A DNA stretch of 64,000 nucleotides from a virus. Under the pieces are notes generated by a model. The model ran no database searches, was not told where the DNA came from, and saw nothing but the letters and a program-made list of their open reading frames with translations. The translations under genes were made by a program, and so were the position numbers. Of this stretch, positions 12,351-57,123 are shown piece by piece (positions within the stretch are counted from its first letter, which is position 1; each line of letters begins with the position of its first letter). Location: IMG/VR virus record IMGVR_UViG_3300042561_000440, positions 1-64,000 of that record; one strand, given 5' to 3'.

Positions 12351-12352
12351 CA

Positions 12353-33900: not shown

Positions 33901-34654
33901 CAAGTATGGTGTCTCTCTTGAGCCTCTCCGCAAGATTCCCGGCATGGCACCCCTTGTTGACGCCATTGCACCAGCCGATGCTAGCGTTACATCGTGGGTA
34001 TCCGACATTGATCTTCCCGGCATAGATCAGATCAATATGTTCCGGCCTAAGGTGGACCCTGAAACCGGGGCCATCTACCCGCTCAAGACCACGACCGACT
34101 CGCTTCTTAGCTTGGCCGAAGGTGCCCACCCACTTATCAAGGCTGGCGTTGAGCTAGGCACCGGACGGGACACATACACCGGGATCAAAAAAAACTACGC
34201 CCGCTCGACCCTGCCTAAAGTCCTGTCCAATCTGGGGATGCTGGGCCCCGAGAGCTACAAAACAGCAGAAAGCCTAGGCATCCTCGACACCGCACTTCAG
34301 TTCGCAGTGCCCGGCTACAGCCGATCTGGCCAGCTAATCCGCAGGCTGACAGACCCGAGGCTAGAGAACCCCGGGACGGCGGCGGCTCAGGCTCTATTCA
34401 ATATGTTCACTGGAGCCAAGATCGAAAACATTGACGATCAGGAAAAGACCCGAGACGCCTTGGATAAGATCAGCGAGATTCTGGCAGACGATCCAGCCGT
34501 CAGGAACTTTGAAAGCACCTATATCCCTAAAGAACTCCTGCCGGTGGTGGACGAGCGAACCCGGCAGCTATACCAACTCGACCGCCAGCTTCGGAAAGAA
34601 CGCAGGCAGATTCAGAATGTGAAGCCAGACCGCTATAACCCGCTCAATTACTAG
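30908..34654 (+). CDS. Giant (1248 aa) putative internal virion protein
   Basis: It begins with TTG directly after the upstream stop, with GGAGGAG just before. It is helical throughout. Around residues 700-735 is a segment TLWKSSILAWPSRFVRDFYSGAFSNFVL, of the kind seen in very large phage internal or polyvalent proteins. A second conserved-looking stretch lies near 930-960 (FHVDYSSLTKFEKGWIRNAIPFWSYQS). It is the longest gene in the window and closes the late operon. I infer an ejected core protein, with no catalytic motif identified. Confidence 0.6.
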   Translation: MDPFAYPGFSDKPKKPIIGYGQQYGLTYNGFDEDVQKEQLSLPERNELLDTLSDYGAPAVSGLFDGLDWLGSQARSAITGKEDASEEDVLKAAGLLPSEEALGGWGRPIAKIAAGIATDPLTYTGLGALGSAATQAGKAAKAAGFLDDAARAASRTQVDNIISGAAKVDDLSWIGKRAQKQFLDDTGTDITRLSDEDLFARPLIGQGQARRDMTLGELLERQRDWGQAHYDESFENLQDFFARNGGDLASLQDTKLTNDINFGLPSYGWNVGFNVPLGESAMKAADAAGDLFRWSAPGRYAHAAFDQSVHGATQAADQIELAKLSRSDAITSAAGRREANRVVSLLPQFKDAATDIRMGNAIRNVIEEVGPTLAGDARVAHDEVLKALTDFRAGTATGEAAQIGQFIDEWKNLSKRYIDRSRDVGIGGGELDDTFGTQYFPRVLDDATFNKGGGGPSRGTDYSRMTSDQIARKASFHVPGGTNTLQELSLDPRLAGQMRTAANDELAADIIQQVMQQKIGQLRAAGRPMVDATGAPLTYSRQNAISLAKTLREIDPDAIAKKLPIFGQHPAESVAKYITGREKAMGRAGVIYNTLGRSAMPVRHTQVTGGGADSALDTLNDLGLNTIDRRGLMLPPGVADIEGAKVQLLDRLHAIGLKNGIPEFAYGNVDSLSNVSFDSRAIKTLQRIADFYEVPEVQSSMFKILDAVTTLWKSSILAWPSRFVRDFYSGAFSNFVLVTHPTDMMNGYASAKHLIQGRSEELDEILQLMPRYKRYATPEERAQKYLGDLAAAGISKGRQLEDVGQSALAKQSGEGIRAELHAGAAPQTTFGFQVTDLLSGRMPLSSRHSAGAELLDLGNWKKSLSDAPQTFLDAVQGKKSDELVNPVLRASAKLGDTTDKLNRIAGYNGLLLQGVSPEQAAKMVMEFHVDYSSLTKFEKGWIRNAIPFWSYQSRIGKWALKQIVTKPGGAFTQAGIRAPQVLSQNGAEDEYVPARIADKYGVSLEPLRKIPGMAPLVDAIAPADASVTSWVSDIDLPGIDQINMFRPKVDPETGAIYPLKTTTDSLLSLAEGAHPLIKAGVELGTGRDTYTGIKKNYARSTLPKVLSNLGMLGPESYKTAESLGILDTALQFAVPGYSRSGQLIRRLTDPRLENPGTAAAQALFNMFTGAKIENIDDQEKTRDALDKISEILADDPAVRNFESTYIPKELLPVVDERTRQLYQLDRQLRKERRQIQNVKPDRYNPLNY

Positions 34655-35625
34655 CCTGCTATTGGAGGCGGTGATGGACAGGAGTTTGGCAGTAGGCTCT
34701 TATCAATATAGTGCTTCATAGCAAGCTCGGGTGAGCGGTGTCCCAAGAAGCGGCTGGCCTGACCGGGATTGGTCGCCTCGACCCACGTTGCCCCGGTCCT
34801 TCGCATCCACTTGCAGGTGCCAATCACGCCCGCCTGTTTCACCAGACGCGCCCACCTGATCCGCAGCCACCGCTCTGCCAGTGCCCAGCGGAAAATGGTG
34901 CCGTCTTTTGAGCGGACACTTAGGTCGTTGAGAATCCGGCTGCACTCCGGTGACAGAACGTGGACGATGCCGTCGCCGGTTTTGTGCTGGATGGTGTGCA
35001 GCCTGCCGTCCCGAATCTGGTGTGCCTTGAGGTTGAGCAGGTCGCTGAACCTGAGGCCGCACTCGTACCCCGCCAACAGCCAGCCGCTGAAGAAGAGGGC
35101 CGCCGGGCACCCGCTCTGTAGGTTGCCAGAAAGTTGACGGGCGTGGTGCAGCAGACGCCGCAGTTCCTCCTGTGTCCATGCAACCGGCGGTGACAGCGGT
35201 GCCTTGACTCTGCGCACACCGTCCGTAAAATGTGTGGCACTGGGACCGAGGGCAGCCCGCACAACCGTACAGGCCTGCCGCCGGTAATTCGCCTTGGTTT
35301 GTTTGGAGCAGGCCAGCGAGTCGAGCCAGTTGTTGATCGATTCAGGATTCAGGTTGGCCACGGATGTCACGCCAAACGCGGACAGTCTCTCGACTGTCCT
35401 GTACAGATGCCGCCGGTAGTTGGGGCAGACCTCTCTCTGCGAGAGGTATCGGTCCAGCACTGCCTTCAGCGGTGTCTTGTCTGTCATTGGTGGTACGTCG
35501 TGGCGTCCACTATCCTGACCAGTCTTTCGCGGTCGTGCCGTTCCCCCCAAAGATGGCGACTTCTTTTTGGGGGTCTTCTCCCCGCTGTGTTTTTTCCGAC
35601 AAAAAAAGGAATCGTGAACCCTCAT
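34651..35625 (-). CDS. int: Tyrosine recombinase (phage integrase)
   Basis: It is 324 residues. ATG at 35625 is chosen because GGAG lies seven bases upstream on this strand. An N-terminal SAM-like core-binding domain (LKAVLDRYLSQREVCPNYRRHLYRTVERL) precedes the catalytic domain. That domain has box I Arg (AGYECGLRFSDLLNLK), a Lys (HKTGDG), Arg of box II (KWMRRTGATW), LGH and the terminal Tyr (MKHYID). The usual box II His is replaced by Lys. It catalyses site-specific integration and excision. A tRNA-Gly fragment 66 bp beyond its start is the likely attP. Confidence 0.9.
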   Translation of the reverse strand: MRVHDSFFCRKKHSGEKTPKKKSPSLGGTARPRKTGQDSGRHDVPPMTDKTPLKAVLDRYLSQREVCPNYRRHLYRTVERLSAFGVTSVANLNPESINNWLDSLACSKQTKANYRRQACTVVRAALGPSATHFTDGVRRVKAPLSPPVAWTQEELRRLLHHARQLSGNLQSGCPAALFFSGWLLAGYECGLRFSDLLNLKAHQIRDGRLHTIQHKTGDGIVHVLSPECSRILNDLSVRSKDGTIFRWALAERWLRIRWARLVKQAGVIGTCKWMRRTGATWVEATNPGQASRFLGHRSPELAMKHYIDKSLLPNSCPSPPPIAG

Positions 35626-42598: not shown

Positions 42599-43370
42599 TG
42601 TATTTCCTTGGGGTCTTGGTGGCCTTGCCCATCTTGATTGACCCACCCCGGGCGGTGAGTTCCCTGAACCCGTCCCGCCCGGGGTAGCCAGCAGCCCTAG
42701 CCTTGAGGGCATAGTGGAACCAGCACTGCCAATACTGGTCGCCATTGGCCCGCCTTATCCCCTTCTTCCTAAGGTATTCTGCGATCCCCTTCCAAGTCTT
42801 GCCGTGCTGGTCATGCTGCACGATGGCCCACTCAATGATCTTGCGTTCGGTGTGGTCCCAGTCCCACTGACCGGCACTGTTCTTCTTCCAGCCTACGGGC
42901 GGCCTATTCCCAGCAGGCAGGCCCTTCTCTGCCCGGATGGCCATGGCTTCTTTGGTTCGCTGGCTAATCCAGTGTCGCTCCAGTTCCGCCACTGACCCAA
43001 GCAAGTGCATGACGAACTTGCCCAGCGGGGTGGCTGTATCCAAGGCAACGTCCAGAGACAGGAAGCCAATGCCCTTGGCGTCGAACATCTGGATCAAGTG
43101 GGTCATGTCGAACAGGTTACGGAAGGCCCGGTCCATCTTGGACCAGCACACAACGTCACCCTTCTGGGCCAGCACCCACAGCTTCAGCCCCTCAGGCCGC
43201 TCGGTAAAAGGCTTGCCGCCCGAGGTAGCCTTGTCCTCAAAGAACCCGCCCCACTCATGGGTCTCACTAAACCGTGCATCATAGGTGGCACGGATAACCT
43301 TTTGCTGTGCCTCAAAGGTATAGGCCTGACCAGATGTCGAAGCCCGGCAGTATCCGTAGAAGGTTGGCAT
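42417..43370 (-). CDS. Serine recombinase (resolvase/invertase family)
   Basis: It is 317 residues from ATG 43370. The catalytic domain shows YGYCRASTSGQ (Ser11 nucleophile), SKMDRAFRN and ELERHWISQRTKEAM. A recombinase-type middle (GNRPPVGWKK...GKTWKGIAEYLRKKGI) follows, then a disordered Ser/Pro/Gln/Thr tail. That last ~60 residues is antisense to the sigma-like gene, so the C-terminus may be a chance extension. It could act in fibre-region inversion, or be a second integration or excision enzyme. Confidence 0.82.
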   Translation of the reverse strand: MPTFYGYCRASTSGQAYTFEAQQKVIRATYDARFSETHEWGGFFEDKATSGGKPFTERPEGLKLWVLAQKGDVVCWSKMDRAFRNLFDMTHLIQMFDAKGIGFLSLDVALDTATPLGKFVMHLLGSVAELERHWISQRTKEAMAIRAEKGLPAGNRPPVGWKKNSAGQWDWDHTERKIIEWAIVQHDQHGKTWKGIAEYLRKKGIRRANGDQYWQCWFHYALKARAAGYPGRDGFRELTARGGSIKMGKATKTPRKYTRRQGDPQSQTEACPESSEASSSQSDNHAPTPCQTPESSPPCSDHQTQTAPPNPSQSQSA

Positions 43371-48441: not shown

Positions 48442-49602
48442 TCACCCCGCCTTCTTCTGACGGAGGTGGGCCGGGATGCGGTCGCCAAACTCACTCAGTG
48501 CAGCCAATGACTTGGCACTCAGCTTGGTCTTCTCAGGCCGGGCCTTGACCAAGTGCTTGAGTTGGGTGAACACAAGGTCTGCCGTGTCCTTGCCCACGTT
48601 CTTGCAGAACAGGTCAATGGCAGCGTCCATCCGGCTCTCGGAATACTGGTTCTTGATGGCAGTCACCACCGAAACCAGCAAGGTCACGGTCAAGTCAGCC
48701 CGCTTCTTGTCGTGCTGAAAGGTCTTGCGCCCGGCCAGCACTTCCTCAACATCAACGAGGTCACGCTGGTCAATGAACTGCATCAGGTTGCGGCCAGTGG
48801 TTGCACCAACCAGAGCCACGGCAATGTCCTTCTTGACAGTGGCCGGGGCATTGACTGACTCAGCAGCAGCCAGTGCATCTCGGCACCACCGCCAAGTACG
48901 GGGAGTGGCATAGGCCATGACATCATCCCCATTCGGCTTCACCAACCGCTCTGCTGAGTTCTTGTCGGTGTAGCTGGTGATGGCACTACCAAACAGGGCA
49001 CGGTAACGCTTCCAGTCAGAGGGAACATCGGGGATAAAGGCAGTGCCCCACTCGTCATCTTCCGAGTTCATGCCCCGCTTCCAAGACTCGTAGTCAGGCT
49101 TCCACTCAAAGTGAGCGAAGCGATTGGCCAGAGACTTCTCAAGCGGGCTGGCATTGGGTGCCCACTCAGGAGGATTGCAGGCTGCCATGAAGATGGTGTC
49201 CGGGTGGATCACCAAGTCACCGATCAAAAGCTCGGTGTAAATCTGAAGCAGTGCAGCCCGAACAGTTGGCGGGACGGTGGTCATCTCGTCGGTAAAGAGC
49301 AATGCCCCGGGCCGAGTCAATCGACCTGCCCACTTGGGCGGTGCCGCCACAAAGTAGGACTTGTCCTCAGACAGGAACGGGATGCCGCTGAAATCCTCAG
49401 GGGCATGGCAGGCACCGATGACATAGCTCAGGTCACGGCCCCAAGCCTTGGCCACCTGCTTGATAACAGCAGACTTGCCAACGCCGGGAGGCCCGGAGAA
49501 CAGGACCGGGGCACCAACCCTTGCGGTGATGAAGCCAGCAACATTGGGGTCAGCCTTCGCCCAATCCCGGCTGGTGTAGATAGGGTGAACAGTAGAAACC
49601 AT
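48442..49602 (-). CDS. MoxR-family AAA+ ATPase
   Basis: It is 386 residues, with ATG 49602 preceded by GGAGAAATCCAA. Walker A is GPPGVGKS (37-44), Walker B LLFTDE (D105-E106), sensor 1 ACNPPE and the arginine-finger region SLANRF. MoxR ATPases form hexamers and work with VWA proteins to remodel or activate client complexes. Here the partner VWA is two genes downstream. A repeated leader hairpin lies ~50 nt upstream of the start. Confidence 0.88.
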   Translation of the reverse strand: MVSTVHPIYTSRDWAKADPNVAGFITARVGAPVLFSGPPGVGKSAVIKQVAKAWGRDLSYVIGACHAPEDFSGIPFLSEDKSYFVAAPPKWAGRLTRPGALLFTDEMTTVPPTVRAALLQIYTELLIGDLVIHPDTIFMAACNPPEWAPNASPLEKSLANRFAHFEWKPDYESWKRGMNSEDDEWGTAFIPDVPSDWKRYRALFGSAITSYTDKNSAERLVKPNGDDVMAYATPRTWRWCRDALAAAESVNAPATVKKDIAVALVGATTGRNLMQFIDQRDLVDVEEVLAGRKTFQHDKKRADLTVTLLVSVVTAIKNQYSESRMDAAIDLFCKNVGKDTADLVFTQLKHLVKARPEKTKLSAKSLAALSEFGDRIPAHLRQKKAG

Positions 49603-49647: not shown

Positions 49648-49680
49648 GACCACAGGTCCCGGCCCAGCTTCGCTGGGCTC
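49648..49680 (-). repeat. Leader element U, copy 1
   Basis: This is the first of five copies of a block reading, on the minus strand, a short GC hairpin (GCCCAGC-GAA-GCTGGGC) followed by CCGGG(A/T)(C/T)CTGTGGT. It lies 46-78 nt upstream of the MoxR ATG and just past the stop of the preceding gene. Copies 2-5 are at 54046, 55848, 56474 and 56713. Confidence 0.65.
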
Positions 49681-49693
49681 ATGCGTCTAACGA

Positions 49694-49981
49694 TCAGGTG
49701 CAGAACCGCATCGCAAGATTTGCCTTGTTCTCGGCAATGTTCTTCTCCATGCACTCAACGCACTGGTTCTGCATGGCAATCAGGTTCGTCAGTTGAGACA
49801 CCAGCTTCTCGGCATCCTCAACAGTGAAGAACTTCTCCATGTTGGCTTCTTTCCAGTGGGCCTCATGCACAAGGCTGGACAGATACTTGCTGAACGGCAG
49901 CGTTCTTTCCTCAAGATGTGCAACCAAGGCACTTGCCGCTTCGTTGAACTCACTCCAATCGGGCTCTTCTTCTCTCGCCAT
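49694..49981 (-). CDS. Small helical protein
   Basis: It is 95 residues from ATG 49981, which follows AAGGA (in-frame alternatives lie at 50041 and 50050). It is acidic and helical (EEPDWSEFNEAASALVAHLEERTLPFSKYLSSL), ending with a Cys-containing helix (NQCVECMEKNIAEN). Its function is unknown. Confidence 0.5.
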   Translation of the reverse strand: MAREEEPDWSEFNEAASALVAHLEERTLPFSKYLSSLVHEAHWKEANMEKFFTVEDAEKLVSQLTNLIAMQNQCVECMEKNIAENKANLAMRFCT

Positions 49982-50037
49982 GTGGGTTTTTCCTTGTGAA
50001 GTAAGGGGAACTTGAGCAAGCCGCTTCTTGGTGCGCT

Positions 50038-50940
50038 TCATGAACACCATTCCAGTGCAGCATGGGCATTGACCGCATCCTTGACCTTCTTGACGATCTC
50101 CTTGGACTCAACCAGATCGACACCCAAGATTTCCGAGTAGTCATTCAGCAAGTCCAAGACTTCCTGACACTCCTTCAGCCGGGTGGCAGTGCCATTAGCC
50201 CGCTGCTTCTTGTCATCGCCAAGGTCATGGATCGAGGCCTCGACAGCCTTCATCCGGTCCTTGGCAATCTGCTTGACTGCCTTCATCACCGCCGCATAAG
50301 AAGTCTCAGTGGGGACCACCGGGAACTTCACCATCACCAACTCAGGCCCGCCGCCAATGGCATTGATGTGCTTGGCAAACTGATCGAACCGCTCAATCCC
50401 CTTCTCAGGCAGGAAGTAAAAGCCGCCCGTCCGTCGCACAAGGATTCCACCCAAGGTGGAGATGACCTTGGCAAAGCAGCCGGAAACCATGGCAGTTGGG
50501 TAGTAGTTGCAGCGGTGGTCAAACACCTTCTGCAACACCGCCTCCACCTGAGACTTATGGTTGTCGAGCTGGGGAAGAATGGCTGAGTTGTGCTTGGGGA
50601 TGCAGACCATCCCGTTGGCATCAATCACAACACTTGCCACAAACACCGGGTCAACATCCTCATTGCCGGGATTGATCTGGCGGGCATCAAACCCAGTGAC
50701 ATCTGCCGACAGCCGGAAGGTCTTGATTGGCTTGCCCCGCACCTTGATCTTGGCCTTCTCGATGAAGGTCATGAAAGCATCTTGCAGGGCAGCCGCCTTG
50801 ACGCTGTGCTTGGGAGCCAGCCCATCAAGGTTCACCCCCTTGAGTGCCGCAGCAAGGTCAGCAATCTTCATCTCCTCGGGCTCCCAGTAAATCATCCCAC
50901 CGTCCTTGCCCGATCCATCGACGTTGATGATCTTGTTCAT
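50038..50940 (-). CDS. Conserved phage-type protein of unknown function
   Basis: It is 300 residues, with ATG 50940 after AAGAGGTGAGT. It is globular and alpha/beta, with an apparent domain around DFGARQ-like and GGFYFLPEKGIERFDQFAKHINAIGGG segments. The C-terminus is a long helix (DRMKAVEASIHDLGDDKKQRANGTATRLKECQEVLDLLNDY). It lies between the ParB-like gene and the MoxR-VWA genes and may belong to that system. No family could be named. Confidence 0.55.
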   Translation of the reverse strand: MNKIINVDGSGKDGGMIYWEPEEMKIADLAAALKGVNLDGLAPKHSVKAAALQDAFMTFIEKAKIKVRGKPIKTFRLSADVTGFDARQINPGNEDVDPVFVASVVIDANGMVCIPKHNSAILPQLDNHKSQVEAVLQKVFDHRCNYYPTAMVSGCFAKVISTLGGILVRRTGGFYFLPEKGIERFDQFAKHINAIGGGPELVMVKFPVVPTETSYAAVMKAVKQIAKDRMKAVEASIHDLGDDKKQRANGTATRLKECQEVLDLLNDYSEILGVDLVESKEIVKKVKDAVNAHAALEWCS

Positions 50941-51030
50941 ACTCACCTCTTTCTTTAGTGCAGGCACAATGCCTGAGCCCACTTGCCAAGGCTTGCACTT
51001 GGCTGCCGCTAAGTAAGTGGGTGCCAGTTA

Positions 51031-51876
51031 CTAGACTGGCGGGAGTTCAAACGTGGCATCGGGCCGTGCATACAGCTTGCTCAGGCCGCGATGCTCAAGG
51101 AATGCAACAATCGCAGTGCAACACCGAACGTAGGTGTCGAACCGTGCCGGAATTCCCTTGTGAAGGACGTTGGACAACAGGTATTCCCGAAGCCTGATTG
51201 CCGCAGTGTCACCGGCAGAAGGGGCAATCCCGCTGGCAAGGATTTCCATGAACTCCTTGAGGCGGGTCTTGTTTGCTGAGAACGAAGCCGCAGCAATGGC
51301 AGCGTAGACCTGAGCAATGGCAATCTTCCGGTGCTGCCGGACGGACATGGCAAAGATCACTGCCTGTTCGTACTGGGACTGCATCTTGGCAAACTCACCA
51401 AGCTCAACCTCCTCATAGGTGGTCGAGTTCCAGCACTCAGCACCAATGGTCTGACGCTCAAGCTCAACAAGCATTGCCCGGTAGACAGCCAAGGCATTCC
51501 GGCTCAGGTGCTTGCCGGTAAAGTCCATGTTGTCCCCGAGAGTCCTCTTGTCGCCCTTGTCCAAAGAGTCATGGGCCTCAAGTGGCAGGCCGTAAGTCAC
51601 CATCACTTGGACCGGAACCCCGGCCAAGACAATGGCTGCAAGCCGGTGCTGTCCGTCAGCCAAGACATCGTTCTCGTAGAAGGCAATGCCTTGATGCGTC
51701 ACCCTCCACAGTCCCTTGGTGATGGACCGGGCAATCGACTTGACCTTTCGCTCCGACATCTTTCTGTTGCGTTTGTTGGCAGTTGTCAGCCAAGACTTGG
51801 CAACTTGTGGGGTGACGGTCATCACTTCGCTGATGAGACCGCTGGCGGAACTGTTGTTGGTAATGCTTTTAATCAT
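51031..51876 (-). CDS. ParB-like (ParB/Srx fold) protein
   Basis: It is 281 residues. The core NKRNRKMSERKVKSIARSITKGLWRVTHQGIAFYENDVLADGQHRLAAIVLAGVPVQVMVTYGL matches the ParB/sulfiredoxin-like domain common in phage (the RxTHQGIAF...DGQHRLxA signature). Many such domains bind nucleotide and DNA, and some are nucleases. The C-terminal ~150 residues are helical. A nucleic-acid or host-takeover function is inferred. Confidence 0.78.
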   Translation of the reverse strand: MIKSITNNSSASGLISEVMTVTPQVAKSWLTTANKRNRKMSERKVKSIARSITKGLWRVTHQGIAFYENDVLADGQHRLAAIVLAGVPVQVMVTYGLPLEAHDSLDKGDKRTLGDNMDFTGKHLSRNALAVYRAMLVELERQTIGAECWNSTTYEEVELGEFAKMQSQYEQAVIFAMSVRQHRKIAIAQVYAAIAAASFSANKTRLKEFMEILASGIAPSAGDTAAIRLREYLLSNVLHKGIPARFDTYVRCCTAIVAFLEHRGLSKLYARPDATFELPPV

Positions 51877-52088
51877 CGAGCCCTCCTGTATGCCCTTGAT
51901 GCCATCCGAATTTGTTCGGGGTCATGGCCTACAACAACCAATGACCCAGCAGTCTTGTGCCCGTAGCTCATAAACGTCACCTTGCGATGCTCACCGGAGC
52001 AGCCAAGGCAAGTAACCGACCGCCCAGTCTCAAGAAGAAACTCAGCCCGCTCGTCAGCAACAGGCTGGTCACACCTCAAGCACTTCAC
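51873..52088 (-). CDS. Small zinc-finger protein
   Basis: It is 71 residues with a GTG start. CLRCDQPVADERAEFLLETGRSVTCLGC is a DksA/TraR-like four-Cys arrangement. The rest is basic. Both ends overlap neighbours, so it is coupled within the leftward operon. Confidence 0.55.
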   Translation of the reverse strand: MKCLRCDQPVADERAEFLLETGRSVTCLGCSGEHRKVTFMSYGHKTAGSLVVVGHDPEQIRMASRAYRRAR

Positions 52089-52363
52089 TCAGCCCTCCTT
52101 TCAGACTCCCTTGCACCAGCCAAGGAAATCTTGTGTGTCGGGTCTTCGCTGTTGATGTCGGCCCAAATCAGCACCCAAAGCTGACCCTCATACCACTCAA
52201 CCTTGACGGGCAGGCCGCAGCCATCTTGAGAACCGCAGTCCCCGTAGCCTTCGGCACCAAACCAAAGGGTGCCGCCCTCTGCCAGCACCACAGTGAAAGG
52301 CACCTTGGTATTGTCGCCTGTGTGAAAGTCCTCCAAGACGCCACTGAACTTGATGTCACTCAT
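52085..52363 (-). CDS. Small beta-rich protein of unknown function
   Basis: It is 92 residues, with ATG 52363 after GGGAGGGG. It is beta-rich (KVPFTVVLAEGGTLWFGAEGYGDCGSQDGCGLPVKVEWYEGQLWVLIWADI) with a CGSQDGC loop. No family is recognised. Confidence 0.55.
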   Translation of the reverse strand: MSDIKFSGVLEDFHTGDNTKVPFTVVLAEGGTLWFGAEGYGDCGSQDGCGLPVKVEWYEGQLWVLIWADINSEDPTHKISLAGARESERRAE

Positions 52364-52652
52364 GGCCCCTCCCTTCTGCCTTGGCAATGGCGTCTGTAAA
52401 AACCTCAAACTCCCCGGACAGATGCTCGTCAATGTCGTAGTCCTGCATGACATCCACTGCTTTCTTGAGAGCGGCCAGCAAGTCATGGGCAGAGGCAGCG
52501 CGGCCTGCAACAACATCTTCCCGGCGAACCACATCGGCCTGCTCCATGAGGGCAAGCCTCATGTTGTCGGCGTGTTCGGAGAAAGCCATGGCCTGCCGAA
52601 CCCAGTAGTCCCGGCTTTTCCGAAGTCGATTGATCTCGTCGGCGTCACTCAT
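52356..52652 (-). CDS. Small helical protein
   Basis: It is 98 residues with a good ribosome site (AAGGAGATGAGG). It is acidic and helical, possibly coiled-coil (INRLRKSRDYWVRQAMAFSEHADNMRLALMEQADVV). The function is unknown. Confidence 0.5.
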   Translation of the reverse strand: MSDADEINRLRKSRDYWVRQAMAFSEHADNMRLALMEQADVVRREDVVAGRAASAHDLLAALKKAVDVMQDYDIDEHLSGEFEVFTDAIAKAEGRGHE

Positions 52653-52858
52653 TCCTCATCTCCTTTCTTAGGACCATAGATGTCCTTGAGCCTGTCCCTC
52701 TCAGCCGGGGACAGTGCGTCATAGATTTCGTACTGGGTCTCAACCGGCAGCTTGAAGATGTCCCTCAGGTCAACCATCCCCTTGAAGGGAGAGTCCTTTT
52801 CGATGGCCAGCTTGATGACCACCACCCAATCCTCAACCGTCTTGTCCTTGGCTTTCAC
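52649..52858 (-). CDS. Small helical protein
   Basis: It is 69 residues with a GTG start overlapping the upstream stop. It is helical and charged (VETQYEIYDALSPAERDRLKDIYG). The function is unknown. Confidence 0.5.
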   Translation of the reverse strand: MKAKDKTVEDWVVVIKLAIEKDSPFKGMVDLRDIFKLPVETQYEIYDALSPAERDRLKDIYGPKKGDEE

Positions 52859-53022
52859 TTCTTATCTCCCTCTCTTGTGGTGTGGCTCCAAGTCAGTTGC
52901 GGGGCCAGCCAGTTGCAGAAGGCTCTGACGTATTGCTCCCGGCTTTCCTCAGGTTGTGGCCCCCTGAAACCACGCAGCTTCAGGTGGGCAGCAAGCTCCT
53001 CGATGGTGCTGACGTTGCTCAT
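52855..53022 (-). CDS. Very small helical protein
   Basis: It is 55 residues (SNVSTIEELAAHLKLRGF...YVRAFCNWLAPQL). ATG 53022 overlaps the upstream stop as TGATG, and the stop overlaps the next GTG, so it is locked into the operon. No motif is recognised. Confidence 0.5.
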   Translation of the reverse strand: MSNVSTIEELAAHLKLRGFRGPQPEESREQYVRAFCNWLAPQLTWSHTTREGDKK

Positions 53023-53159
53023 CACTCATCCTCCTCATAGCTTTCGACAACAACTGACTCGTCCGGCCTTAGGTCAAGCAGGTCTTGCCAGTCCCAAGAG
53101 TCAGGGCTGGGCGTAAACTTCTCATTGAAAATGATGGTCAGGGTGACGGTGGCTTTCAT
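53022..53159 (-). CDS. Very small acidic protein
   Basis: It is 45 residues (KATVTLTIIFNEKFTPSPDSWDWQDLL...SYEEDE), with a beta start and an acidic end. ATG 53159 follows GGAGGGTGAAGA. It overlaps genes on both sides. Confidence 0.5.
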   Translation of the reverse strand: MKATVTLTIIFNEKFTPSPDSWDWQDLLDLRPDESVVVESYEEDE

Positions 53160-53254
53160 TCTTCACCCTCCCCTTGGACACACTTGGGGCAGGTCGTGAC
53201 TCCCTCAAGCTGGAGGAAGCAGCCGCAAGAATCGCAGTGGTCAGATTCACTCAT
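53156..53254 (-). CDS. Tiny zinc-ribbon peptide
   Basis: It is 32 residues with two CxxC-type pairs (CDSCGC, CPKC), enough for one zinc ribbon. AAGAAAGG stands upstream and the stop overlaps the next start. It would be missed by length filters. Confidence 0.5.
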   Translation of the reverse strand: MSESDHCDSCGCFLQLEGVTTCPKCVQGEGEE

Positions 53255-53309
53255 GGCAAACCTTTCTTACGCAGATTGGACAATCCAGATAGAGGCTTTT
53301 GTCGAGCCA

Positions 53310-53355
53310 CAAAAAAACCCGGCCAGCCCCAAGGTTTCCCTCAGGACTGGCCGGG
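53310..53355 (-). terminator. Intrinsic terminator with U7
   Basis: The minus-strand stem CCCGGCCAGTCC/GGGGCTGGCCGGG is followed by TTTTTTTG. It ends the unit containing the genes at 53387-54001. Confidence 0.85.
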
Positions 53356-53386
53356 CCACACACTTCACAGGAGTCTCTTAGTCAGG

Positions 53387-53497
53387 TCAGGAATAGGCCT
53401 CGGTCAAAATGAAGCCTTCAACGTCATCCAGCCACGAAATCACCTTGTCAGGAGTAGGAACAAGGGTTGGTGTCACGACTGCCACAACTTCCTTCAT
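53387..53497 (-). CDS. Tiny protein of unknown function
   Basis: It is 36 residues (KEVVAVVTPTLVPTPDKVISWLDDVEGFILTEAYS), with a hydrophobic start and an acidic end. It is placed between a small membrane peptide and a terminator. Confidence 0.4.
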   Translation of the reverse strand: MKEVVAVVTPTLVPTPDKVISWLDDVEGFILTEAYS

Positions 53498-53499
53498 AA

Positions 53500-53577
53500 T
53501 CACCCCATAGTAAAAAAGGTTGTGATAAACCAGTAGGAAACGGCACCGCACAGATAACTGAAGGCAAGGTCTTGCAT
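53500..53577 (-). CDS. Tiny membrane peptide
   Basis: It is 25 residues, almost all one hydrophobic segment (LAFSYLCGAVSYWFITTFF). The start overlaps the neighbourhood of the upstream stop after GAGGG. It is plausible as a single-span peptide but supported only by position. Confidence 0.35.
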   Translation of the reverse strand: MQDLAFSYLCGAVSYWFITTFFTMG

Positions 53578-53578
53578 C

Positions 53579-54001
53579 TCAGTTGCCCTCCCTCTTGACA
53601 CCCCGCTTTCGGAGCCCAGCAGCCTTGGCAGCAGCCCTCCAAGCTGGATATTCAGGCGACTGGAAGAAGGCAGCAAGCTCGTCAACTTGGTCCTCGTAGA
53701 GGCTGCAAGCGTTCTGGAACTTGGGATTCCGCCAGTGGAACTTGCAGTAGCCCAAGGGGTAGACCGTGGTGTCGCAAGGGGCTCCCTCAAGGGCAACCTT
53801 CTCGTCAGCAGGGATCGACCGATACTTAGCCTTGGCAGGCTCGGAAGGAATCGGGGCAGCAATTACTTGCTCGACAACAGCGTCAGTCACAGCTTCAGCA
53901 GCGGCCTCAACAGCGGCTTCCACAGCAGCAGCGGAAGGAGGAGTGTGGTCGCCCATGATTTCAGCAAACATTTCGTCAAAGTTGTCATTGTCATTGGACA
54001 T
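53579..54001 (-). CDS. Acidic/Ala-rich protein with conserved C-terminal domain
   Basis: It is 140 residues. The N-terminal 50 are Ala/Val/Glu-rich and disordered. The C-terminal domain (APCDTTVYPLGYCKFHWRNPKFQNACSLYEDQVDELAAFFQSPEYPAWRAA) has regularly spaced Cys/His and aromatics, suggesting metal binding. Leader element U copy 2 lies ~45 nt upstream. Confidence 0.5.
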   Translation of the reverse strand: MSNDNDNFDEMFAEIMGDHTPPSAAAVEAAVEAAAEAVTDAVVEQVIAAPIPSEPAKAKYRSIPADEKVALEGAPCDTTVYPLGYCKFHWRNPKFQNACSLYEDQVDELAAFFQSPEYPAWRAAAKAAGLRKRGVKREGN

Positions 54002-54045
54002 GGATACTCTCCAGAGGGGAAACGGGGGGAAACGGAACCGGCCCA

Positions 54046-54080
54046 GACCACAGAACCCGGCCCAGCGTTAGCTGGGCTCG
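54046..54080 (-). repeat. Leader element U, copy 2
   Basis: A hairpin (AGCCCAGC-TAA-CGCTGGGC on minus) is followed by CCGGGTTCTGTGGT. It overlaps the stop of the gene at 54068 and lies ~45 nt upstream of ATG 54001. Confidence 0.65.
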
Positions 54081-54391
54081 CGGGGGGAAATTGCTCTTGC
54101 CGCCATCGCCACCAAGGCTTCAAGCATGGCATTAAGCTTGGACTCATAGTCAGACTTCTCACTTGCCCTAAGCTCGGCAAGCTTGACGCACTCGTCTTGG
54201 GTGGCAGCAAGTTGGTTGCTGATGTTGCTGATCGTCTTGAAAAGCTCTGCCTCTCTTTCTCTTAGGGCTTGATTGCCCCGAATAACCTGCGCCTCAAGCT
54301 GGCTAACCCTGTCCCTAAGAAGGTTTTCTTCGGACAGGAGCAGCCTGCTACGCTTGGGCTTTGGCCCTAGCAAGAAGTCTTTCCTTGCCAT
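54068..54391 (-). CDS. Coiled-coil protein
   Basis: It is 107 residues, with ATG 54391 after AAGGAGAAAGC. It is an almost continuous helix (ENLLRDRVSQLEAQVIRGNQALREREAELFKTISNISNQLAATQDE) typical of a coiled coil, with a basic N-terminus (GPKPKRSRLLL). The function is unknown. Confidence 0.55.
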   Translation of the reverse strand: MARKDFLLGPKPKRSRLLLSEENLLRDRVSQLEAQVIRGNQALREREAELFKTISNISNQLAATQDECVKLAELRASEKSDYESKLNAMLEALVAMAARAISPREPS

Positions 54392-54422
54392 GCTTTCTCC
54401 TTGGTGGTGGGGAAGTGACAAC

Positions 54423-54465
54423 AAAAAAACCGGGGCAGCCAAGGATTTCTCCCTGACTGCCCCGG
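54423..54465 (-). terminator. Intrinsic terminator with U7
   Basis: The minus-strand stem CCGGGGCAG/CTGCCCCGG is followed by TTTTTTTGTT. It ends the unit of genes at 54483-55211. Confidence 0.85.
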
Positions 54466-54482
54466 TAAGCAATTGCCCCACT

Positions 54483-54638
54483 TCAGATAACGTCCCAACC
54501 ATTGAGCCGAATGTGCTGGGTCTCAAGCCTCTTGCCAGCCCTGCGGTTAGCCCGGTGGTTAAGCCTCTTGAAATCCTTCTTGCCGCGCCGCTTGGAGCCC
54601 TTGGTGACCATGCTCCAAGCCTTGGTCCAGTCAGTCAT
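54483..54638 (-). CDS. Small basic protein
   Basis: It is 51 residues, highly basic (TKGSKRRGKKDFKRLNHRANRRAGKRLETQH), and could bind RNA or DNA. It starts at ATG 54638 inside the upstream gene's last codons. Confidence 0.5.
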   Translation of the reverse strand: MTDWTKAWSMVTKGSKRRGKKDFKRLNHRANRRAGKRLETQHIRLNGWDVI

Positions 54639-54837
54639 TCAGCACCCCTTTCTTGAGTTCGGCAATATCTTCACTCAGCACGGCAATCCTTCTGGTCTTG
54701 GCGTTGCCCCACTTCTCAAGCCTCGCCTTTTCCTCTTCCAAGAACTTGACCCTTGCCAGAAGGGCCGCAATCTGAACGTCCTTGGCCTGAACCAAAATCT
54801 TGAGCCCGTCGTCGGTCAACCTATCCAAAATGGACAT
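54631..54837 (-). CDS. Small coiled-coil protein
   Basis: It is 68 residues (ILDRLTDDGLKILVQAKDVQIAALLARVKFLEEEKARLEKWGN), a leucine-heptad helix. AAGGAGTCTTGCC stands upstream of ATG 54837. It probably dimerises. Confidence 0.5.
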   Translation of the reverse strand: MSILDRLTDDGLKILVQAKDVQIAALLARVKFLEEEKARLEKWGNAKTRRIAVLSEDIAELKKGVLND

Positions 54838-54848
54838 GGCAAGACTCC

Positions 54849-55211
54849 TTAGGAAAAGAGGGACAACTGTTTAGATTGCTGCTGGCAACTACCCCCTTGG
54901 GCAGGACGCCAACGATGCCGCTCCTTGACCAACTCCCAGACTTCAAGAAACTCAGGAGTACCCTTGGCCCATTCCTTGCCGTAGTTGCGTCTCGGCACTC
55001 TCAAGAATTGCCGCTCAACCCGGTGGATAAGCTCATTCTCAGCAGCCACCATGTCATTGGTGGGGAAGGAATCTATTGGTGTGAGAATGTCTGGATTGGG
55101 CTTTCGGTAGGCAGGGTTTCTCTTGGATATATCCCGAGCCTTGCCGAAGCAGTAAAGCCTCTTGTCGGGGTCATACCTGAGGTAGATAAACCCAGCTTGG
55201 TAGCCATCCAT
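54849..55211 (-). CDS. GIY-YIG-like nuclease (T5orf172/MUG113 type)
   Basis: It is 120 residues. The pattern GFIYLRYDPDKRLYCFGKARDISKR...SFPTNDMVAAENELIHR resembles the GIY-YIG fold variant T5orf172: YxY strand, FGK/R motif and the catalytic Glu helix. The classic GIY/YIG letters are degenerate (FIY/CFG), so activity is uncertain. It is probably a DNA nuclease, perhaps a mobile element. Confidence 0.65.
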   Translation of the reverse strand: MDGYQAGFIYLRYDPDKRLYCFGKARDISKRNPAYRKPNPDILTPIDSFPTNDMVAAENELIHRVERQFLRVPRRNYGKEWAKGTPEFLEVWELVKERHRWRPAQGGSCQQQSKQLSLFS

Positions 55212-55232
55212 GAGTCCCTCCTTTCTGGGAAC

Positions 55233-55276
55233 AAAAAAACCCCCGGAACCCAAGGATTTCTCCAAGGATTCCGGGG
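55233..55276 (-). terminator. Intrinsic terminator with U7
   Basis: The minus-strand hairpin has stem CCCCGGAA/TTCCGGGG followed by GTTTTTTTG. It terminates the single gene at 55296-55505. Confidence 0.85.
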
Positions 55277-55295
55277 TAGTGGTGGCCCTCAAGGC

Positions 55296-55505
55296 TCAGT
55301 TGTCCGAAGGCTTGGCGTTCAGGTTGGCCCGGCAAGTCTCAATCACCAGCTTGACCGCCTCAGTCTGGAGGACAGCCAAGAACTTGACGCCCACTTCCTT
55401 GCTGACCTTTCCAGTGTGCATCCCAACAAAGACTTGGGCAGCGGTGGCCATGGCATTGTGAATCACGTTGTCCACCATGGCCCTATCTTCAGCGGTCATG
55501 TTCAT
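55296..55505 (-). CDS. Small helical protein
   Basis: It is 69 residues from ATG 55505. It is helical (MVDNVIHNAMATAAQVFVGMHTGKVSKEVGVKFLAVLQTEAVKLVIETC). It forms its own transcription unit between two U7 terminators. Confidence 0.5.
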   Translation of the reverse strand: MNMTAEDRAMVDNVIHNAMATAAQVFVGMHTGKVSKEVGVKFLAVLQTEAVKLVIETCRANLNAKPSDN

Positions 55506-55546
55506 GATTAAGCCTTCTTTTTGAGGGTGAAACTGACTGACTGAAC

Positions 55547-55585
55547 AAAAAAACCCCGGCCAACCCATTGAAGGGCTGACCGGGG
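55547..55585 (-). terminator. Intrinsic terminator with U7
   Basis: The minus-strand stem CCCCGGTCA/TTGGCCGGGG type (one mismatch) is followed by TTTTTTTGTT. It ends the gene at 55608. Confidence 0.85.
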
Positions 55586-55607
55586 TAATTGCTTGCCCAG
55601 AGGGGGC

Positions 55608-55805
55608 TCACTCAACAACGACGTAGCCGTTCTCCTCCAAGACTTCAGTTGCAGCGAGGTGGGCGCAAGCAACTTGCTCTTCGGGCTCCATGCCATCGTC
55701 ATAGAAGGCAAGGATGTTGGCCTCAGGATCGACATCCTTGAGGGGCTGCCCAGCAGTCTTGGAGACCAACTGAGCGACGTAGGCAACGAATTCATAGCGT
55801 TTCAT
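55608..55805 (-). CDS. Small acidic protein
   Basis: It is 65 residues, acidic (DVDPEANILAFYDDGMEPEEQVACAHLAATEVLEENGYVVVE). It is a single-gene unit between a terminator and leader element U copy 3. The function is unknown. Confidence 0.5.
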   Translation of the reverse strand: MKRYEFVAYVAQLVSKTAGQPLKDVDPEANILAFYDDGMEPEEQVACAHLAATEVLEENGYVVVE

Positions 55806-55847
55806 GGGAAAGACTCCTGAGAAGGGGTGTGAGAACCGGAACCGCTG

Positions 55848-55880
55848 AACCACAGAACCCGCCTCCCCTTTGGGGAGGAC
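55848..55880 (-). repeat. Leader element U, copy 3
   Basis: A hairpin (CCTCCCC-AAA-GGGGAGG on minus) precedes CGGGTTCTGTGGT, ~45 nt upstream of ATG 55805. The arm sequence differs from the other copies but the pairing and the flanking CTGTGGT are kept, which is evidence of conserved structure. Confidence 0.6.
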
Positions 55881-55909
55881 ACGGGGGGAAGATGCTGATG
55901 AACTTCAGG

Positions 55910-56023
55910 AGACCCACCCAAGAATCGAACTTGGCCCCCTGAGCAAGGCTCAAAGGTTCCATGTCGAGCTTCAGCCCCAAGCCCTCTAGAAAGACTTGAG
56001 AACGTCGTTAGCCCTTGTGGGCC
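55910..56023 (-). tRNA. tRNA-like element, possible CUA anticodon, very long variable region
   Basis: On the minus strand the ends GGCCCAC and GTGGGTC pair (one G-U). A perfect T arm CCAAG-TTCGATT-CTTGG with the canonical TTCGA core precedes the 3' strand. An anticodon arm AGTCT-TTCTAGA-GGGCT gives anticodon CTA (amber). A 45-nt variable region contains the hairpin CCTTTGAGC/GCTCAGGGG. The D arm is poor and lacks the usual GG. It may be a diverged suppressor tRNA or a tRNA mimic. Confidence 0.4.
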
Positions 56024-56040
56024 ACCTGAAATCCACCAAC

Positions 56041-56081
56041 AAAAAAACCCCCAGAGCAACCCGTTAAGGTCACTCTGGGGG
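56041..56081 (-). terminator. Intrinsic terminator with U7
   Basis: The minus-strand stem CCCCCAGAG/CTCTGGGGG is followed by TTTTTTTGTT. It ends the gene at 56104 and separates it from the tRNA-like element. Confidence 0.85.
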
Positions 56082-56103
56082 TTAGTTGGGAAGCCCCTAA
56101 GGC

Positions 56104-56427
56104 TTAAGCCTTGGGACGGTCAGAGAGGCTAGCAAGCTCACTCTGGAGGTGGGCAATGAGTTCCTCCACAGCGTTCTTGTAGAGGCAACCATTGCCTTGG
56201 TTGAGTTCCAGCCGGATGTATCCCTTGGGATACCGGGTGGTGGACATGGTGGAAGTCTTGGCCCTCCACTGAACCTTGCCCTCGACCGGCTGGTAATCCT
56301 TGGGCTTGGGCTCAAGGAAGGCCTTGATGGTGGGCTTGAGGTGGTCAAACACCCCAGACTTGTCCTCCAGCATGGCCTTGAGTTGAGTCTTGGGGAACTT
56401 GGTGGGGTCAAAAGCAACGGTGGACAT
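56104..56427 (-). CDS. Small protein of unknown function
   Basis: It is 107 residues, mixed alpha/beta (KVQWRAKTSTMSTTRYPKGYIRLELNQGNGCLYKNAVEELIAHLQSEL). It is a single-gene unit with leader U copy 4 upstream and a U7 terminator downstream. No family is recognised. Confidence 0.55.
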   Translation of the reverse strand: MSTVAFDPTKFPKTQLKAMLEDKSGVFDHLKPTIKAFLEPKPKDYQPVEGKVQWRAKTSTMSTTRYPKGYIRLELNQGNGCLYKNAVEELIAHLQSELASLSDRPKA

Positions 56428-56473
56428 GAGAAACTCCTTGGGAAAGTGTGAGAAACAAACCGAACCGAAACCG

Positions 56474-56508
56474 ACCAACCACAGAACCCGGCCCTCCTTC
56501 GGAGGGCT
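56474..56508 (-). repeat. Leader element U, copy 4
   Basis: The hairpin GCCCTCC-GAA-GGAGGGC (minus) is followed by CGGGTTCTGTGGTT, 47-80 nt upstream of ATG 56427. Compensatory changes relative to copies 1 and 5 (CCCAGC to CCCTCC arms) support RNA pairing. Confidence 0.65.
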
Positions 56509-56516
56509 CGCGGGGA

Positions 56517-56651
56517 TCAACTGTTGACTTCAACCTGCTCACTCCTCTGCTCCCAGAGTGAGAGAAACATGTCGAAGATTTCTTCTTGGGTGGCCCCTTG
56601 GTTCATCTCCAAGGTTTCTTGGAACCCCAAGAAGGGACAAGACAGGGACAT
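56517..56651 (-). CDS. Small protein of unknown function
   Basis: It is 44 residues (SLSCPFLGFQETLEMNQGATQEEIFDMFLSLWEQRSEQVEVNS). It is the first gene of the leftward block after the divergent control region, with leader U copy 5 about 60 nt upstream. Confidence 0.45.
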   Translation of the reverse strand: MSLSCPFLGFQETLEMNQGATQEEIFDMFLSLWEQRSEQVEVNS

Positions 56652-56712
56652 GGTGGAATCTCCAGAGAGGGAGAGAGGAGGAAGTGCCAGTTGCCAAGAG
56701 CGGCGACCGGCA

Positions 56713-56748
56713 CCAAACCACAGAGCCCGGCCCAGCTTCGCTGGGCAG
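56713..56748 (-). repeat. Leader element U, copy 5
   Basis: The hairpin GCCCAGC-GAA-GCTGGGC (minus) plus CCGGGCTCTGTGGTTTGG lies at the head of the leftward block. Its arm sequence matches copy 1. Confidence 0.65.
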
Positions 56749-56759
56749 AAACCACACAA

Positions 56760-57123
56760 GAGCTAACTACTGTGGTTCTTCTTGTTCAGCAGAACTGTTG
56801 GTGTTGGTAATTACCTACAGTTGGTGGTGCTGCAAGGAGGGAAGGTCATAGGTTTATGGCAAGTTTTCTTATAGAGCCGGGATACCGTTCCCAGCGATAT
56901 TCCCATTAATAGATCAAGCTGCAAGAGCCGCGCACGCACCCACCCGCCCACCCCCGCGCGTGAGTCAACTACAGTAACGTCCCCCTCTTGGATTTTTTCC
57001 AACTTTTGAAACCGGGGTATCCATCTCTACACCGGGGCATCCCACTAACCAACAAAAGCCCCTTACCAAAACGCACCACGGCCCACATAACGGTTCACAA
57101 GCCCAAGAACCACCGGAGCGGCC
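56760..57123. promoter_or_regulatory. Divergent control region without genes
   Basis: This 364-bp gap separates the leftward block from the rightward late genes. It holds two 12-bp direct repeats, ACCGGGG(T/C)ATCC at 57011 and 57031, exactly 20 bp apart. It also holds three ACTACWGT-like words (56765, 56814, 56969), an inverted repeat TTGGA-TCCAA around a T-run (56988-57002) and a C-rich stretch. I see no protein frame with support. Probable early promoters and repressor sites. Confidence 0.5.

What the first reader, a model, noticed from the sequence alone, without database searches (positions are those of the whole stretch)
49648..56748. Five copies of a structured leader element in the leftward block
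Each copy is a short hairpin followed by CCGGG(T/A)(T/C)CTGTGGT and lies 45-80 nt upstream of a start codon (MoxR and four small genes). Arm sequences differ between copies while pairing is kept (CCCAGC, CCCTCC and CCTCCCC arms), a natural covariation signal. This looks like a common regulatory leader, perhaps bound by a protein such as the phage CsrA.
Basis: partly seen in the sequence, partly recalled or inferred. Interest (0 to 1): 0.75.

Follow-up and report, generated by a model that had tools for sequence, protein, structure and literature searches.

The report
Repeated hairpin leader of planctomycete-like phages
A family of uncultured phages places the same kind of small hairpin followed by a phage-specific signature sequence just before several of its genes, probably as an RNA signal that controls how those genes are expressed.

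Summary
Five copies of hairpin + CGGGNNCTGTGGT lie on the minus strand, 56-78 nt before MoxR and four small genes; the exact pattern occurs nowhere else in the 64,362-base viral record. In this record and seven relatives I count 32 core copies; 30 carry the hairpin. Among 21 alignable copies 5 of 6 pairs change on both sides, none on one side only. Arms vary within a genome. The 13-nt 3' flank is 87% identical within genomes and 50% between, pointing to a co-evolving recogniser. Most loops are C-GNA-G or UNAC, GNRA-like kinds known from phage boxB RNAs. No Rfam match. CsrA binding is not supported: no loop holds GGA, and the seven-copy relative lacks a detectable CsrA. An N4-type hairpin promoter is disfavoured: the GNA loop is on the other strand and no phage RNA polymerase was found (weak test). 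Best reading: a nascent-RNA leader element, more likely acting on polymerase elongation (nut/put-like antitermination) than on translation. The mechanism is inferred; boxA was not found, the stems lack G-U pairs, and the recogniser is unknown.

The parts
56730..56746 (-). copy A hairpin GCCCAGC-GAA-GCTGGGC
56717..56729 (-). copy A core CGGGCTCTGTGGT
56517..56651 (-). gene A, 44 aa, no homologue found by tblastn in nine related records
56491..56507 (-). copy B hairpin GCCCTCC-GAA-GGAGGGC
56478..56490 (-). copy B core CGGGTTCTGTGGT
56104..56427 (-). gene B, 107 aa, unknown; orthologues in G010, G028, L086, L087, each led by a core copy (in G028 the core without the hairpin)
55862..55878 (-). copy C hairpin CCTCCCC-AAA-GGGGAGG
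55849..55861 (-). copy C core CGGGTTCTGTGGT
55608..55805 (-). gene C, 65 aa, unknown
   Evidence: start taken at the inner ATG
54060..54077 (-). copy D hairpin GCCCAGC-TAAC-GCTGGGC; its loop holds the stop codon of the upstream gene
54047..54059 (-). copy D core CGGGTTCTGTGGT
53579..54001 (-). gene D, 140 aa, unknown; orthologues in G010, G028, L086, L087
49662..49678 (-). copy M hairpin GCCCAGC-GAA-GCTGGGC
49649..49661 (-). copy M core CGGGACCTGTGGT
48442..49602 (-). MoxR-type ATPase (phrog_1297; distant matches annotated MoxR ATPase)
50038..50940 (-). DUF6744 protein next to MoxR
56046..56083 (-). intrinsic terminator inside the block
55553..55586 (-). intrinsic terminator inside the block
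55241..55276 (-). intrinsic terminator inside the block (14-nt loop)
54429..54466 (-). intrinsic terminator inside the block
53316..53357 (-). intrinsic terminator inside the block
54483..54638 (-). 51-aa Arg/Lys-rich protein, candidate N-like partner; found in window, G010 and G028, not in L086, L087 or G031

Best explanation
The element is a cis-acting leader signal that is transcribed and works as nascent RNA. SHOWN from sequence: a 4-7 bp hairpin, mostly with a stable GNRA-like loop, whose base pairs covary; a flank of about 13 nt directly 3' of it that is nearly fixed within one phage but different in most related phages; orientation with the downstream gene on either strand; a start codon usually 47-112 nt on. 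INFERRED: the hairpin is a structural platform, as boxB is, and the flank is the sequence-specific part read by a recogniser that co-evolves with it (phage protein or host polymerase/Nus surface). MOST LIKELY STEP (inferred): RNA polymerase that has transcribed the element is modified or paused there and then reads through the intrinsic terminators between the genes, as with lambda nut or HK022 put. The confidence given is for this whole reading, a nascent-RNA leader acting on polymerase elongation; a translational operator is the first rival.
For: Covariation: 38 cells changed on both sides, 0 on one side; 98.4% paired versus 66% in shuffles and at most 53.2% in slid controls (21 of 30 hairpin copies, 9 dropped). 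Loops: 14 of 17 distinct element triloops are GNA versus 7 of 132 background hairpins; 3 of 5 tetraloops are UNAC versus 1 of 150. GAA triloops and UMAC loops occur as GNRA-like motifs, and UMAC is the fold of the phi21 boxB loop bound by N peptide (PMC12550061, passages). Flank identity 0.87 within versus 0.50 between genomes, 0.54 for the same gene between genomes; 0 of 2000 label permutations (26 of 30 hairpin copies, near-duplicate L087 left out). The blocks hold 26 long-stemmed intrinsic terminators; of 19 checked, 15 have no element within the next 200 nt, so read-through seems needed. In G010 one copy is followed by a terminator and only then by the gene. Sigma-70 promoter-like sites in the window block: 1, on the other strand, 2.0 expected.
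Against: Distance to the start codon is fairly constant (median 67, n=23), which antitermination does not require. No G-U pair occurs in 121 pairs of 20 distinct stems, whereas terminator stems of the same blocks have 63 of 373 (Fisher 7e-9); that is odd for RNA and would fit a DNA hairpin. BoxA-like sequences are not enriched upstream (p=0.07). No NusG paralogue in 9 records. The Arg-rich 51-aa protein is missing from L086, L087 and G031, which have the element. Two of four G028 core copies have no hairpin. Loops TTC (G015), AAA (window C) and AAAT (G028) are not of the GNA/UNAC kind. A lax terminator scan of the window block found 13 against 9.7 +/- 3.5 in shuffles, so their number alone is not above chance; only the long stems with 7-T tails are convincing. 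A second hairpin is optional (8 of 26 with z below -1).
Confidence: 0.35

Rival explanations
1. Translational or mRNA-stability operator: the hairpin and core sit in the 5' leader and a phage protein bound there changes ribosome access or decay of the gene behind it.
For: Fairly constant place before a start codon with Shine-Dalgarno sequence, median 67 nt. Pyrimidine-rich stretch between core and Shine-Dalgarno sequence in many leaders, by eye. Flank homogeneous within a genome.
Against: In L086, L087, G015 and G028 the first copy stands 95-125 nt before the next copy with no convincing gene of its own between them; the open frames seen there run across the next copy or, in G028, are at most 25 codons long or run across it. 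In G010 a terminator lies between one copy and its gene.
Confidence: 0.25
2. Hairpin promoter of the N4 type: the palindrome extrudes from DNA and a phage-encoded RNA polymerase starts there.
For: Exchangeable stem bases and a C-GNA-G loop are traits of N4 promoters (PMC4496689, passages); several copies per genome with a genome-specific consensus is a trait of phage polymerase promoters (recalled). All stems are strictly Watson-Crick. A divergent pair occurs in G031.
Against: In N4 the required G..A loop is on the template strand. Here GNA is on the coding strand in 14 of 17 distinct triloops; only G015 has the mirrored loop. No PF00940 polymerase in 7 records (its 14 control genomes were silent, so weak), nor a convincing set of polymerase motifs in the nine large window ORFs or in ORFs of 250 aa or more of four records.
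Confidence: 0.12
3. DNA-level site: cruciform or single-stranded hairpin bound by a protein (replication, recombination or repression).
For: Zero G-U pairs; perfect palindromes.
Against: Orientation with the gene and place before start codons, in G031 on both strands. Coding-strand bias of the loop class, and UNAC loops.
Confidence: 0.1
4. Hairpin-stabilised transcription pause only, with no further factor.
For: A pyrimidine-G step lies 9-11 nt after the hairpin in the representative core of 7 of 7 genomes; known pause hairpins sit 10-13 nt from the RNA end (PMC12288461 and PMC10268239, passages).
Against: p=0.03 only if that offset was fixed beforehand, 0.27 for any offset. G005 copy B lacks the step there. 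A bare pause does not need a nearly identical flank in all copies of a genome.
Confidence: 0.1
5. CsrA-bound leader.
For: Phage CsrA gene at 37690-37854, also in G010 and G028. Shine-Dalgarno GGA is present in the five window leaders.
Against: No GGA in any of 30 element loops. G031 has seven copies and no detectable CsrA. CsrA would not explain a genome-specific core.
Confidence: 0.04

Closest known systems
lambdoid nut site (boxA, boxB) with N protein
   Same: small GC-rich hairpin with GNRA-like loop (GNA; UAAC as in phi21 boxB), arms free to vary, operon with internal terminators; a small Arg-rich protein in three genomes
   Different: conserved single-stranded part lies 3' of the hairpin, not 5'; boxA not enriched; 2-7 copies per record, most of them close to start codons; no common N-like protein found
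HK022 put RNA
   Same: RNA leader of a phage operon that must pass terminators
   Different: put is about 70 nt with two stem-loops with bulges near the early promoters (PMC9378689, passages); here one short perfect hairpin plus a linear core, second hairpin optional
LoaP leader hairpin (dfn operon)
   Same: small leader hairpin upstream of an operon with several intrinsic terminators (PMC12691694, passages)
   Different: UNCG loop, needs a NusG paralogue; none found in these phages
SAS/ESAS repeats of cluster K mycobacteriophages
   Same: repeats tied to start codons in the non-structural half; inverted repeats with a consensus that differs between subclusters (PMC3203893, passages)
   Different: [quoted passage not shown] ESAS repeats are 17 bp, imperfect, with a consensus sequence, and the authors find little support for an mRNA hairpin
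N4 virion RNA polymerase promoters
   Same: short stem with C-GNA-G triloop, non-conserved stem bases exchangeable (PMC4496689, passages)
   Different: GNA on the template strand in N4, on the coding strand here; no polymerase found

Membership tests
lambdoid nut site | boxB hairpin with GNRA-like loop | tested here: met
   14 of 17 distinct triloops GNA, 3 of 5 tetraloops UNAC; fold inferred from sequence
lambdoid nut site | boxA upstream of the hairpin | tested here: not met
   best boxA match within 40 nt upstream of 26 copies no better than background, p=0.07 (boxA letters recalled)
lambdoid nut site | cognate N-like Arg-rich protein | tested here: inconclusive
   51-aa basic protein in window, G010, G028; not found in L086 and L087 (short contigs) nor in G031
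lambdoid nut site | antitermination activity | not testable with these tools
   needs a transcription assay
HK022 put | two adjacent stem-loops in about 70 nt | tested here: not met
   structure beyond shuffles (z below -1) after the core in 8 of 26 copies only; architecture of put
N4 vRNAP promoter | GNA loop on the template strand upstream of the start | tested here: not met
   GNA on the coding strand in five of seven genomes (L086 and L087 as one); mirrored (TTC) only in G015, neither in G028
N4 vRNAP promoter | phage encodes single-subunit RNA polymerase | tested here: inconclusive
   no PF00940 match in 7 records, but controls silent; no convincing motif set in large ORFs
CsrA target | GGA in hairpin loop | tested here: not met
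   0 of 30 loops; the feature is recalled
LoaP/RfaH-type target | NusG paralogue in the same genome | tested here: not met
   0 of 9 records, control rang in 11 of 14
cluster K SAS | 13-bp repeat within a few nt of the start codon | tested here: not met
   hairpin end lies 47-112 nt from the start
any Rfam family | gathering-score match | tested here: not met
   0 matches in the window; five matches far below gathering score in 56420-56820, taken as chance

The most novel reading that the evidence does not exclude
A new class of phage nascent-RNA element: a boxB-like hairpin joined to a 3' specificity core that is private to each phage lineage, repeated before several genes, recruiting an undescribed phage factor that carries polymerase through internal terminators.
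Probability: 0.25. Interest if true: 0.8.

Novelty: new variant of a known kind. Interest (0 to 1): 0.6.

Why it matters
The pattern (free arms, strict pairing, a core fixed within a genome but different between relatives) is what a co-evolving nucleic-acid operator and its reader should leave behind. It is seen in a phage group whose apparent hosts (planctomycetes, judged from one pilin-like gene) have little described phage biology (my knowledge). If it is an antiterminator it would give a second layout for boxB-type control, with the linear box behind the hairpin. It also gives a family of natural variants for testing exchange of specificity between related phages.

Tried and rejected
CsrA binding: not supported. 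Host sigma-70 promoter at the element: six -10-like hexamers gave 0 of 26 within 14 nt upstream, but 0 also in the background windows, so this is uninformative; the consensus scan of the window block found 1 site, on the other strand, against 2.0 expected. N4-like promoter: disfavoured by the strand of the loop. NusG/RfaH/LoaP partner: none found. Antisense partner of the core: in four genomes the longest complements were 9-13 nt, leaving aside those that are the opposite strand of element copies; shuffled cores, tried in three of the genomes, gave means of 9.4-10.2 and maxima of 13-14. Universal second hairpin: not universal. BoxA upstream: not enriched. The 51-aa basic protein as common reader: not in all genomes. 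DUF6744 and the C4 protein as readers: no structural match at E<=0.001. Relatives in bacterial genome contigs: two scans by MoxR, none confirmed. GGGGCTGTGGTTTGGT in viral contigs: 15 stretches, only the two already known have a hairpin. GGGCCGGGTTCTGTGGT in viral contigs: 0. A scan by gene B gave only records already known. Annotated phages: no DNA match to the block; 451 records matched MoxR as protein, all under 60% identity, and I did not look for elements in them.

Rows dropped before counts. From 32 core copies: core matches inside coding sequence without a Watson-Crick hairpin (G028 L111:8745 exact and L109:11653 one mismatch; G031 L114:12983 and L115:2334, one mismatch each; window 12182 and 52244, one mismatch each) were not counted as copies; two G028 matches without hairpin (L111:6566, 6691) were counted because of their place before gene B. 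In one search chance-like pairs in L089, L092, L096, a coding pair in the window and a terminator pair in L087 were left out. In the covariation count 9 of 30 hairpin copies were dropped (named in the report). In G010 copies D and M a triloop reading with one T-G pair is also possible; I used the TAAC reading without it. The covariance model from 21 copies found 25 of 30 known copies, 4 of them not used to build it, and 4 other weak hits (E 0.79 to 3.1; two the same sequence in window and L077, one the reverse strand of a known copy, one in L090) in 712,551 bases of 37 sources; it missed G010 D and M, both G028 hairpin copies and the G031 MoxR copy. Literature: searches for an earlier description listed no title or abstract start that describes this element; of the papers I saw listings, and passages only of PMC3203893, PMC4351075, PMC12288461, PMC12691694, PMC10268239, PMC9378689, PMC12550061 and PMC4496689.
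Full report
WHAT WAS CHECKED. The window is part of a 64,362-base IMG/VR viral record. It encodes portal and major head proteins, a tyrosine integrase (34651-35640), a serine recombinase (42417-43370, matches below the curated cut-offs), a helicase, a CsrA and a MoxR/VWA pair. The core CGGGNNCTGTGGT has 5 exact matches, all on the minus strand, none for the reversed control pattern. Each has a perfect 7-bp hairpin directly 5'; hairpins of that size end at 1.6e-4 of positions in the window. Hairpin end to start codon is 56-78 nt. No Rfam family matches (permissive scan of 401 bases).

RELATIVES. The core as spelled in the window was not found elsewhere in viral contigs, so relatives were sought by protein. 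Portal and terminase scans gave many contigs and MoxR gave records with the same block. In the five of eight MoxR loci with 34% identity or more the block carries the same architecture, with a core that is related in L086/L087 and different in the others: G010 (IMGVR_UViG_3300042518_000658; 4 copies, core AGCGGCGTYTGGT, one with two mismatches), L086 and L087 (nearly the same sequence by eye; 4 copies each, CGGGGCTGTGG / CCGGGCTGTGG), G028 (IMGVR_UViG_3300020048_000145; 4 core copies CGGCYCCGGCTG, 2 of them without a hairpin), G031 (IMGVR_UViG_3300018080_000215; 7 copies, AGCGATGG, on both strands and pointing at the gene behind). The automated scan added G005 (2) and G015 (2). With the window that is 32 core copies in eight records; 30 have a hairpin; the matches not counted are listed under Tried and rejected. 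The distant MoxR loci L089-L091 (25-26% identity) and the 9 of 17 phrog_5931 loci that I gave to the covariance model show no copy, apart from one hit in L090 at E 3.1.

COVARIATION. For 21 copies with a 3-nt loop, 98.4% of cells pair, 5 of 6 pairs change on both sides (the loop-closing C-G never varies), 38 cells changed on both sides and none on one side; covariation score 0.816 against 0.17 in shuffles and at most 0.213 in slid controls. Nine of 30 hairpin copies were dropped: four with a TAAC or TTAC loop (window D, G010 D and M, G031 MoxR), two of G028, the MoxR copies of L086 and L087 (same arms as their C copy) and one G031 copy that the aligner gapped. Copies within a genome are not independent, and L086/L087 are near duplicates. 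The two unpaired cells are G015, whose stems have 5 pairs.

STRICT PAIRING. Among 20 distinct element stems there are 121 Watson-Crick pairs (20 of them A-T) and no G-U; terminator stems in the same blocks have 310 Watson-Crick and 63 G-U (Fisher 7e-9). Short stems tolerate G-U less, so this is a hint towards a DNA-level role or a strong stability demand, not proof. It is the main result against a plain RNA reading.

LOOPS. 14 of 17 distinct triloops are GNA on the coding strand against 7 of 132 background hairpins, and 3 of 5 tetraloops are UNAC against 1 of 150. GNRA-like motifs include a GAA triloop and UMAC loops, the latter found in ribosomes and in the phi21 boxB RNA bound by N peptide (PMC12550061, passages). 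N4 promoters also have C-GNA-G, but on the template strand (PMC4496689, passages), the opposite of five of the seven genomes here; G015 has the mirrored loop and G028 neither.

CORE. In 26 copies (L087 left out) the first 13 nt 3' of the hairpin are 0.87 identical within genomes (46 pairs) and 0.50 between genomes (279 pairs), 0.54 for the same gene in different genomes (34 pairs), one-base shifts allowed; 0 of 2000 label permutations reach this. Cores follow the genome, not the gene. Window, L086/L087 and G005 cores resemble each other (GGGxxCTGTGG / GGGGCTGTGG). A pyrimidine-G step lies 9-11 nt after the hairpin in representative cores of 7 of 7 genomes, a pause-like spacing, but this is weak (p 0.03 if preset, 0.27 otherwise) and G005 copy B lacks it. 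Upstream, CGCG/CGCA/CACG/CGTG lies within 14 nt in 19 of 26 copies against 5.9% of background windows (motif chosen after looking).

CONTEXT. In the window the copies lie after the upstream stop codon, copy D with that stop in its loop, and before a start codon with a Shine-Dalgarno sequence. Over 26 copies my rule found a start for 23 (47-112 nt, median 67); the one for G015 A is doubtful, and G005 A has a 28-codon frame at 77 nt that the rule missed. The blocks hold 26 long-stemmed intrinsic terminators in seven block sequences, although a lax scan of the window block gives 13 terminator-like sites against 9.7 +/- 3.5 in shuffles. Of 19 terminators checked in five blocks (block-end ones, L087 and the G031 minus strand left out), 4 have an element within 200 nt downstream and 15 do not, so the genes behind those seem to depend on read-through. 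In G010 one element is followed by a terminator and only then by gene D. In L086, L087, G015 and G028 the first copy has no convincing gene of its own.

READER. CsrA: in window, G010 and G028, not in G031. NusG paralogue: none in nine records. Phage RNA polymerase: none found, weak test. A 51-aa Arg/Lys-rich protein is conserved in window, G010 and G028 but was not found in L086, L087 or G031. Of 34 window ORFs tried (four with bad coordinates), those found in G010, G028 and G031 but not in G020, where no element was seen, are MoxR, DUF6744, the VWA protein and a C4 zinc-like protein; L086 has the first two clearly and the C4 protein weakly. Structure models of DUF6744 and the C4 protein (mean pLDDT 75 each) had no match at E<=0.001.

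CONCLUSION. That it is a leader element recognised by something that co-evolves is well supported. That it acts as nascent RNA is likely (about 0.65 in my judgement, from loop class, strand and position, against the missing G-U pairs). The step it acts on is inferred: elongation/antitermination about 0.35, translation about 0.25. Membership in the nut, put, LoaP-type, SAS and N4 promoter families was tested, and each fails at least one defining feature.

Noticed in passing
L086:5748-5983 and L087:5102-5303: Arrays of seven (L086) and six (L087) CAACTGC-loop-GCAGTTG hairpins, one lacking the outer pair, with differing loops (GAA, AAA, GTA, CTAA, TAAA) in the gap upstream of the first element copy.
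   Followed up: no
window 56943-57006: Conserved non-coding stretch (TTGGAAAAAATCCAAGAGGGGGACGT) between the two divergent gene blocks, alignable in L040 and L041 and similar by eye in G010, L086, L087 and G031; might be a packaging or control site.
   Followed up: no
window 56770-56777 and 56716-56723: AACCACAG upstream of copy A is complementary to CTGTGGTT of its core, so an alternative fold is possible there; I did not look for the same in the other copies one by one.
   Followed up: partly
window 54068-54070: The stop codon of the gene before copy D is the UAA of the hairpin's UAAC loop.
   Followed up: no
window 51876-52088: 71-aa protein with CxxC...CxxC, conserved in G010, G028 and G031; looks a little like TraR/DksA zinc fingers (recalled), but no family or structure match.
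   Followed up: partly
window 37690-37854: Phage-encoded CsrA, also in G010 and G028.
   Followed up: partly
window 12332-13315: ORF with a type IV pilin-like start ([20 protein letters not shown]), which suggests a planctomycete-type host (recalled association).
   Followed up: no
L114:7197-7334 (G031): 138 bp between two divergent element copies must hold both promoters if the elements are transcribed; repeats of GGTTACGA and AGAAGACTT lie there.
   Followed up: no
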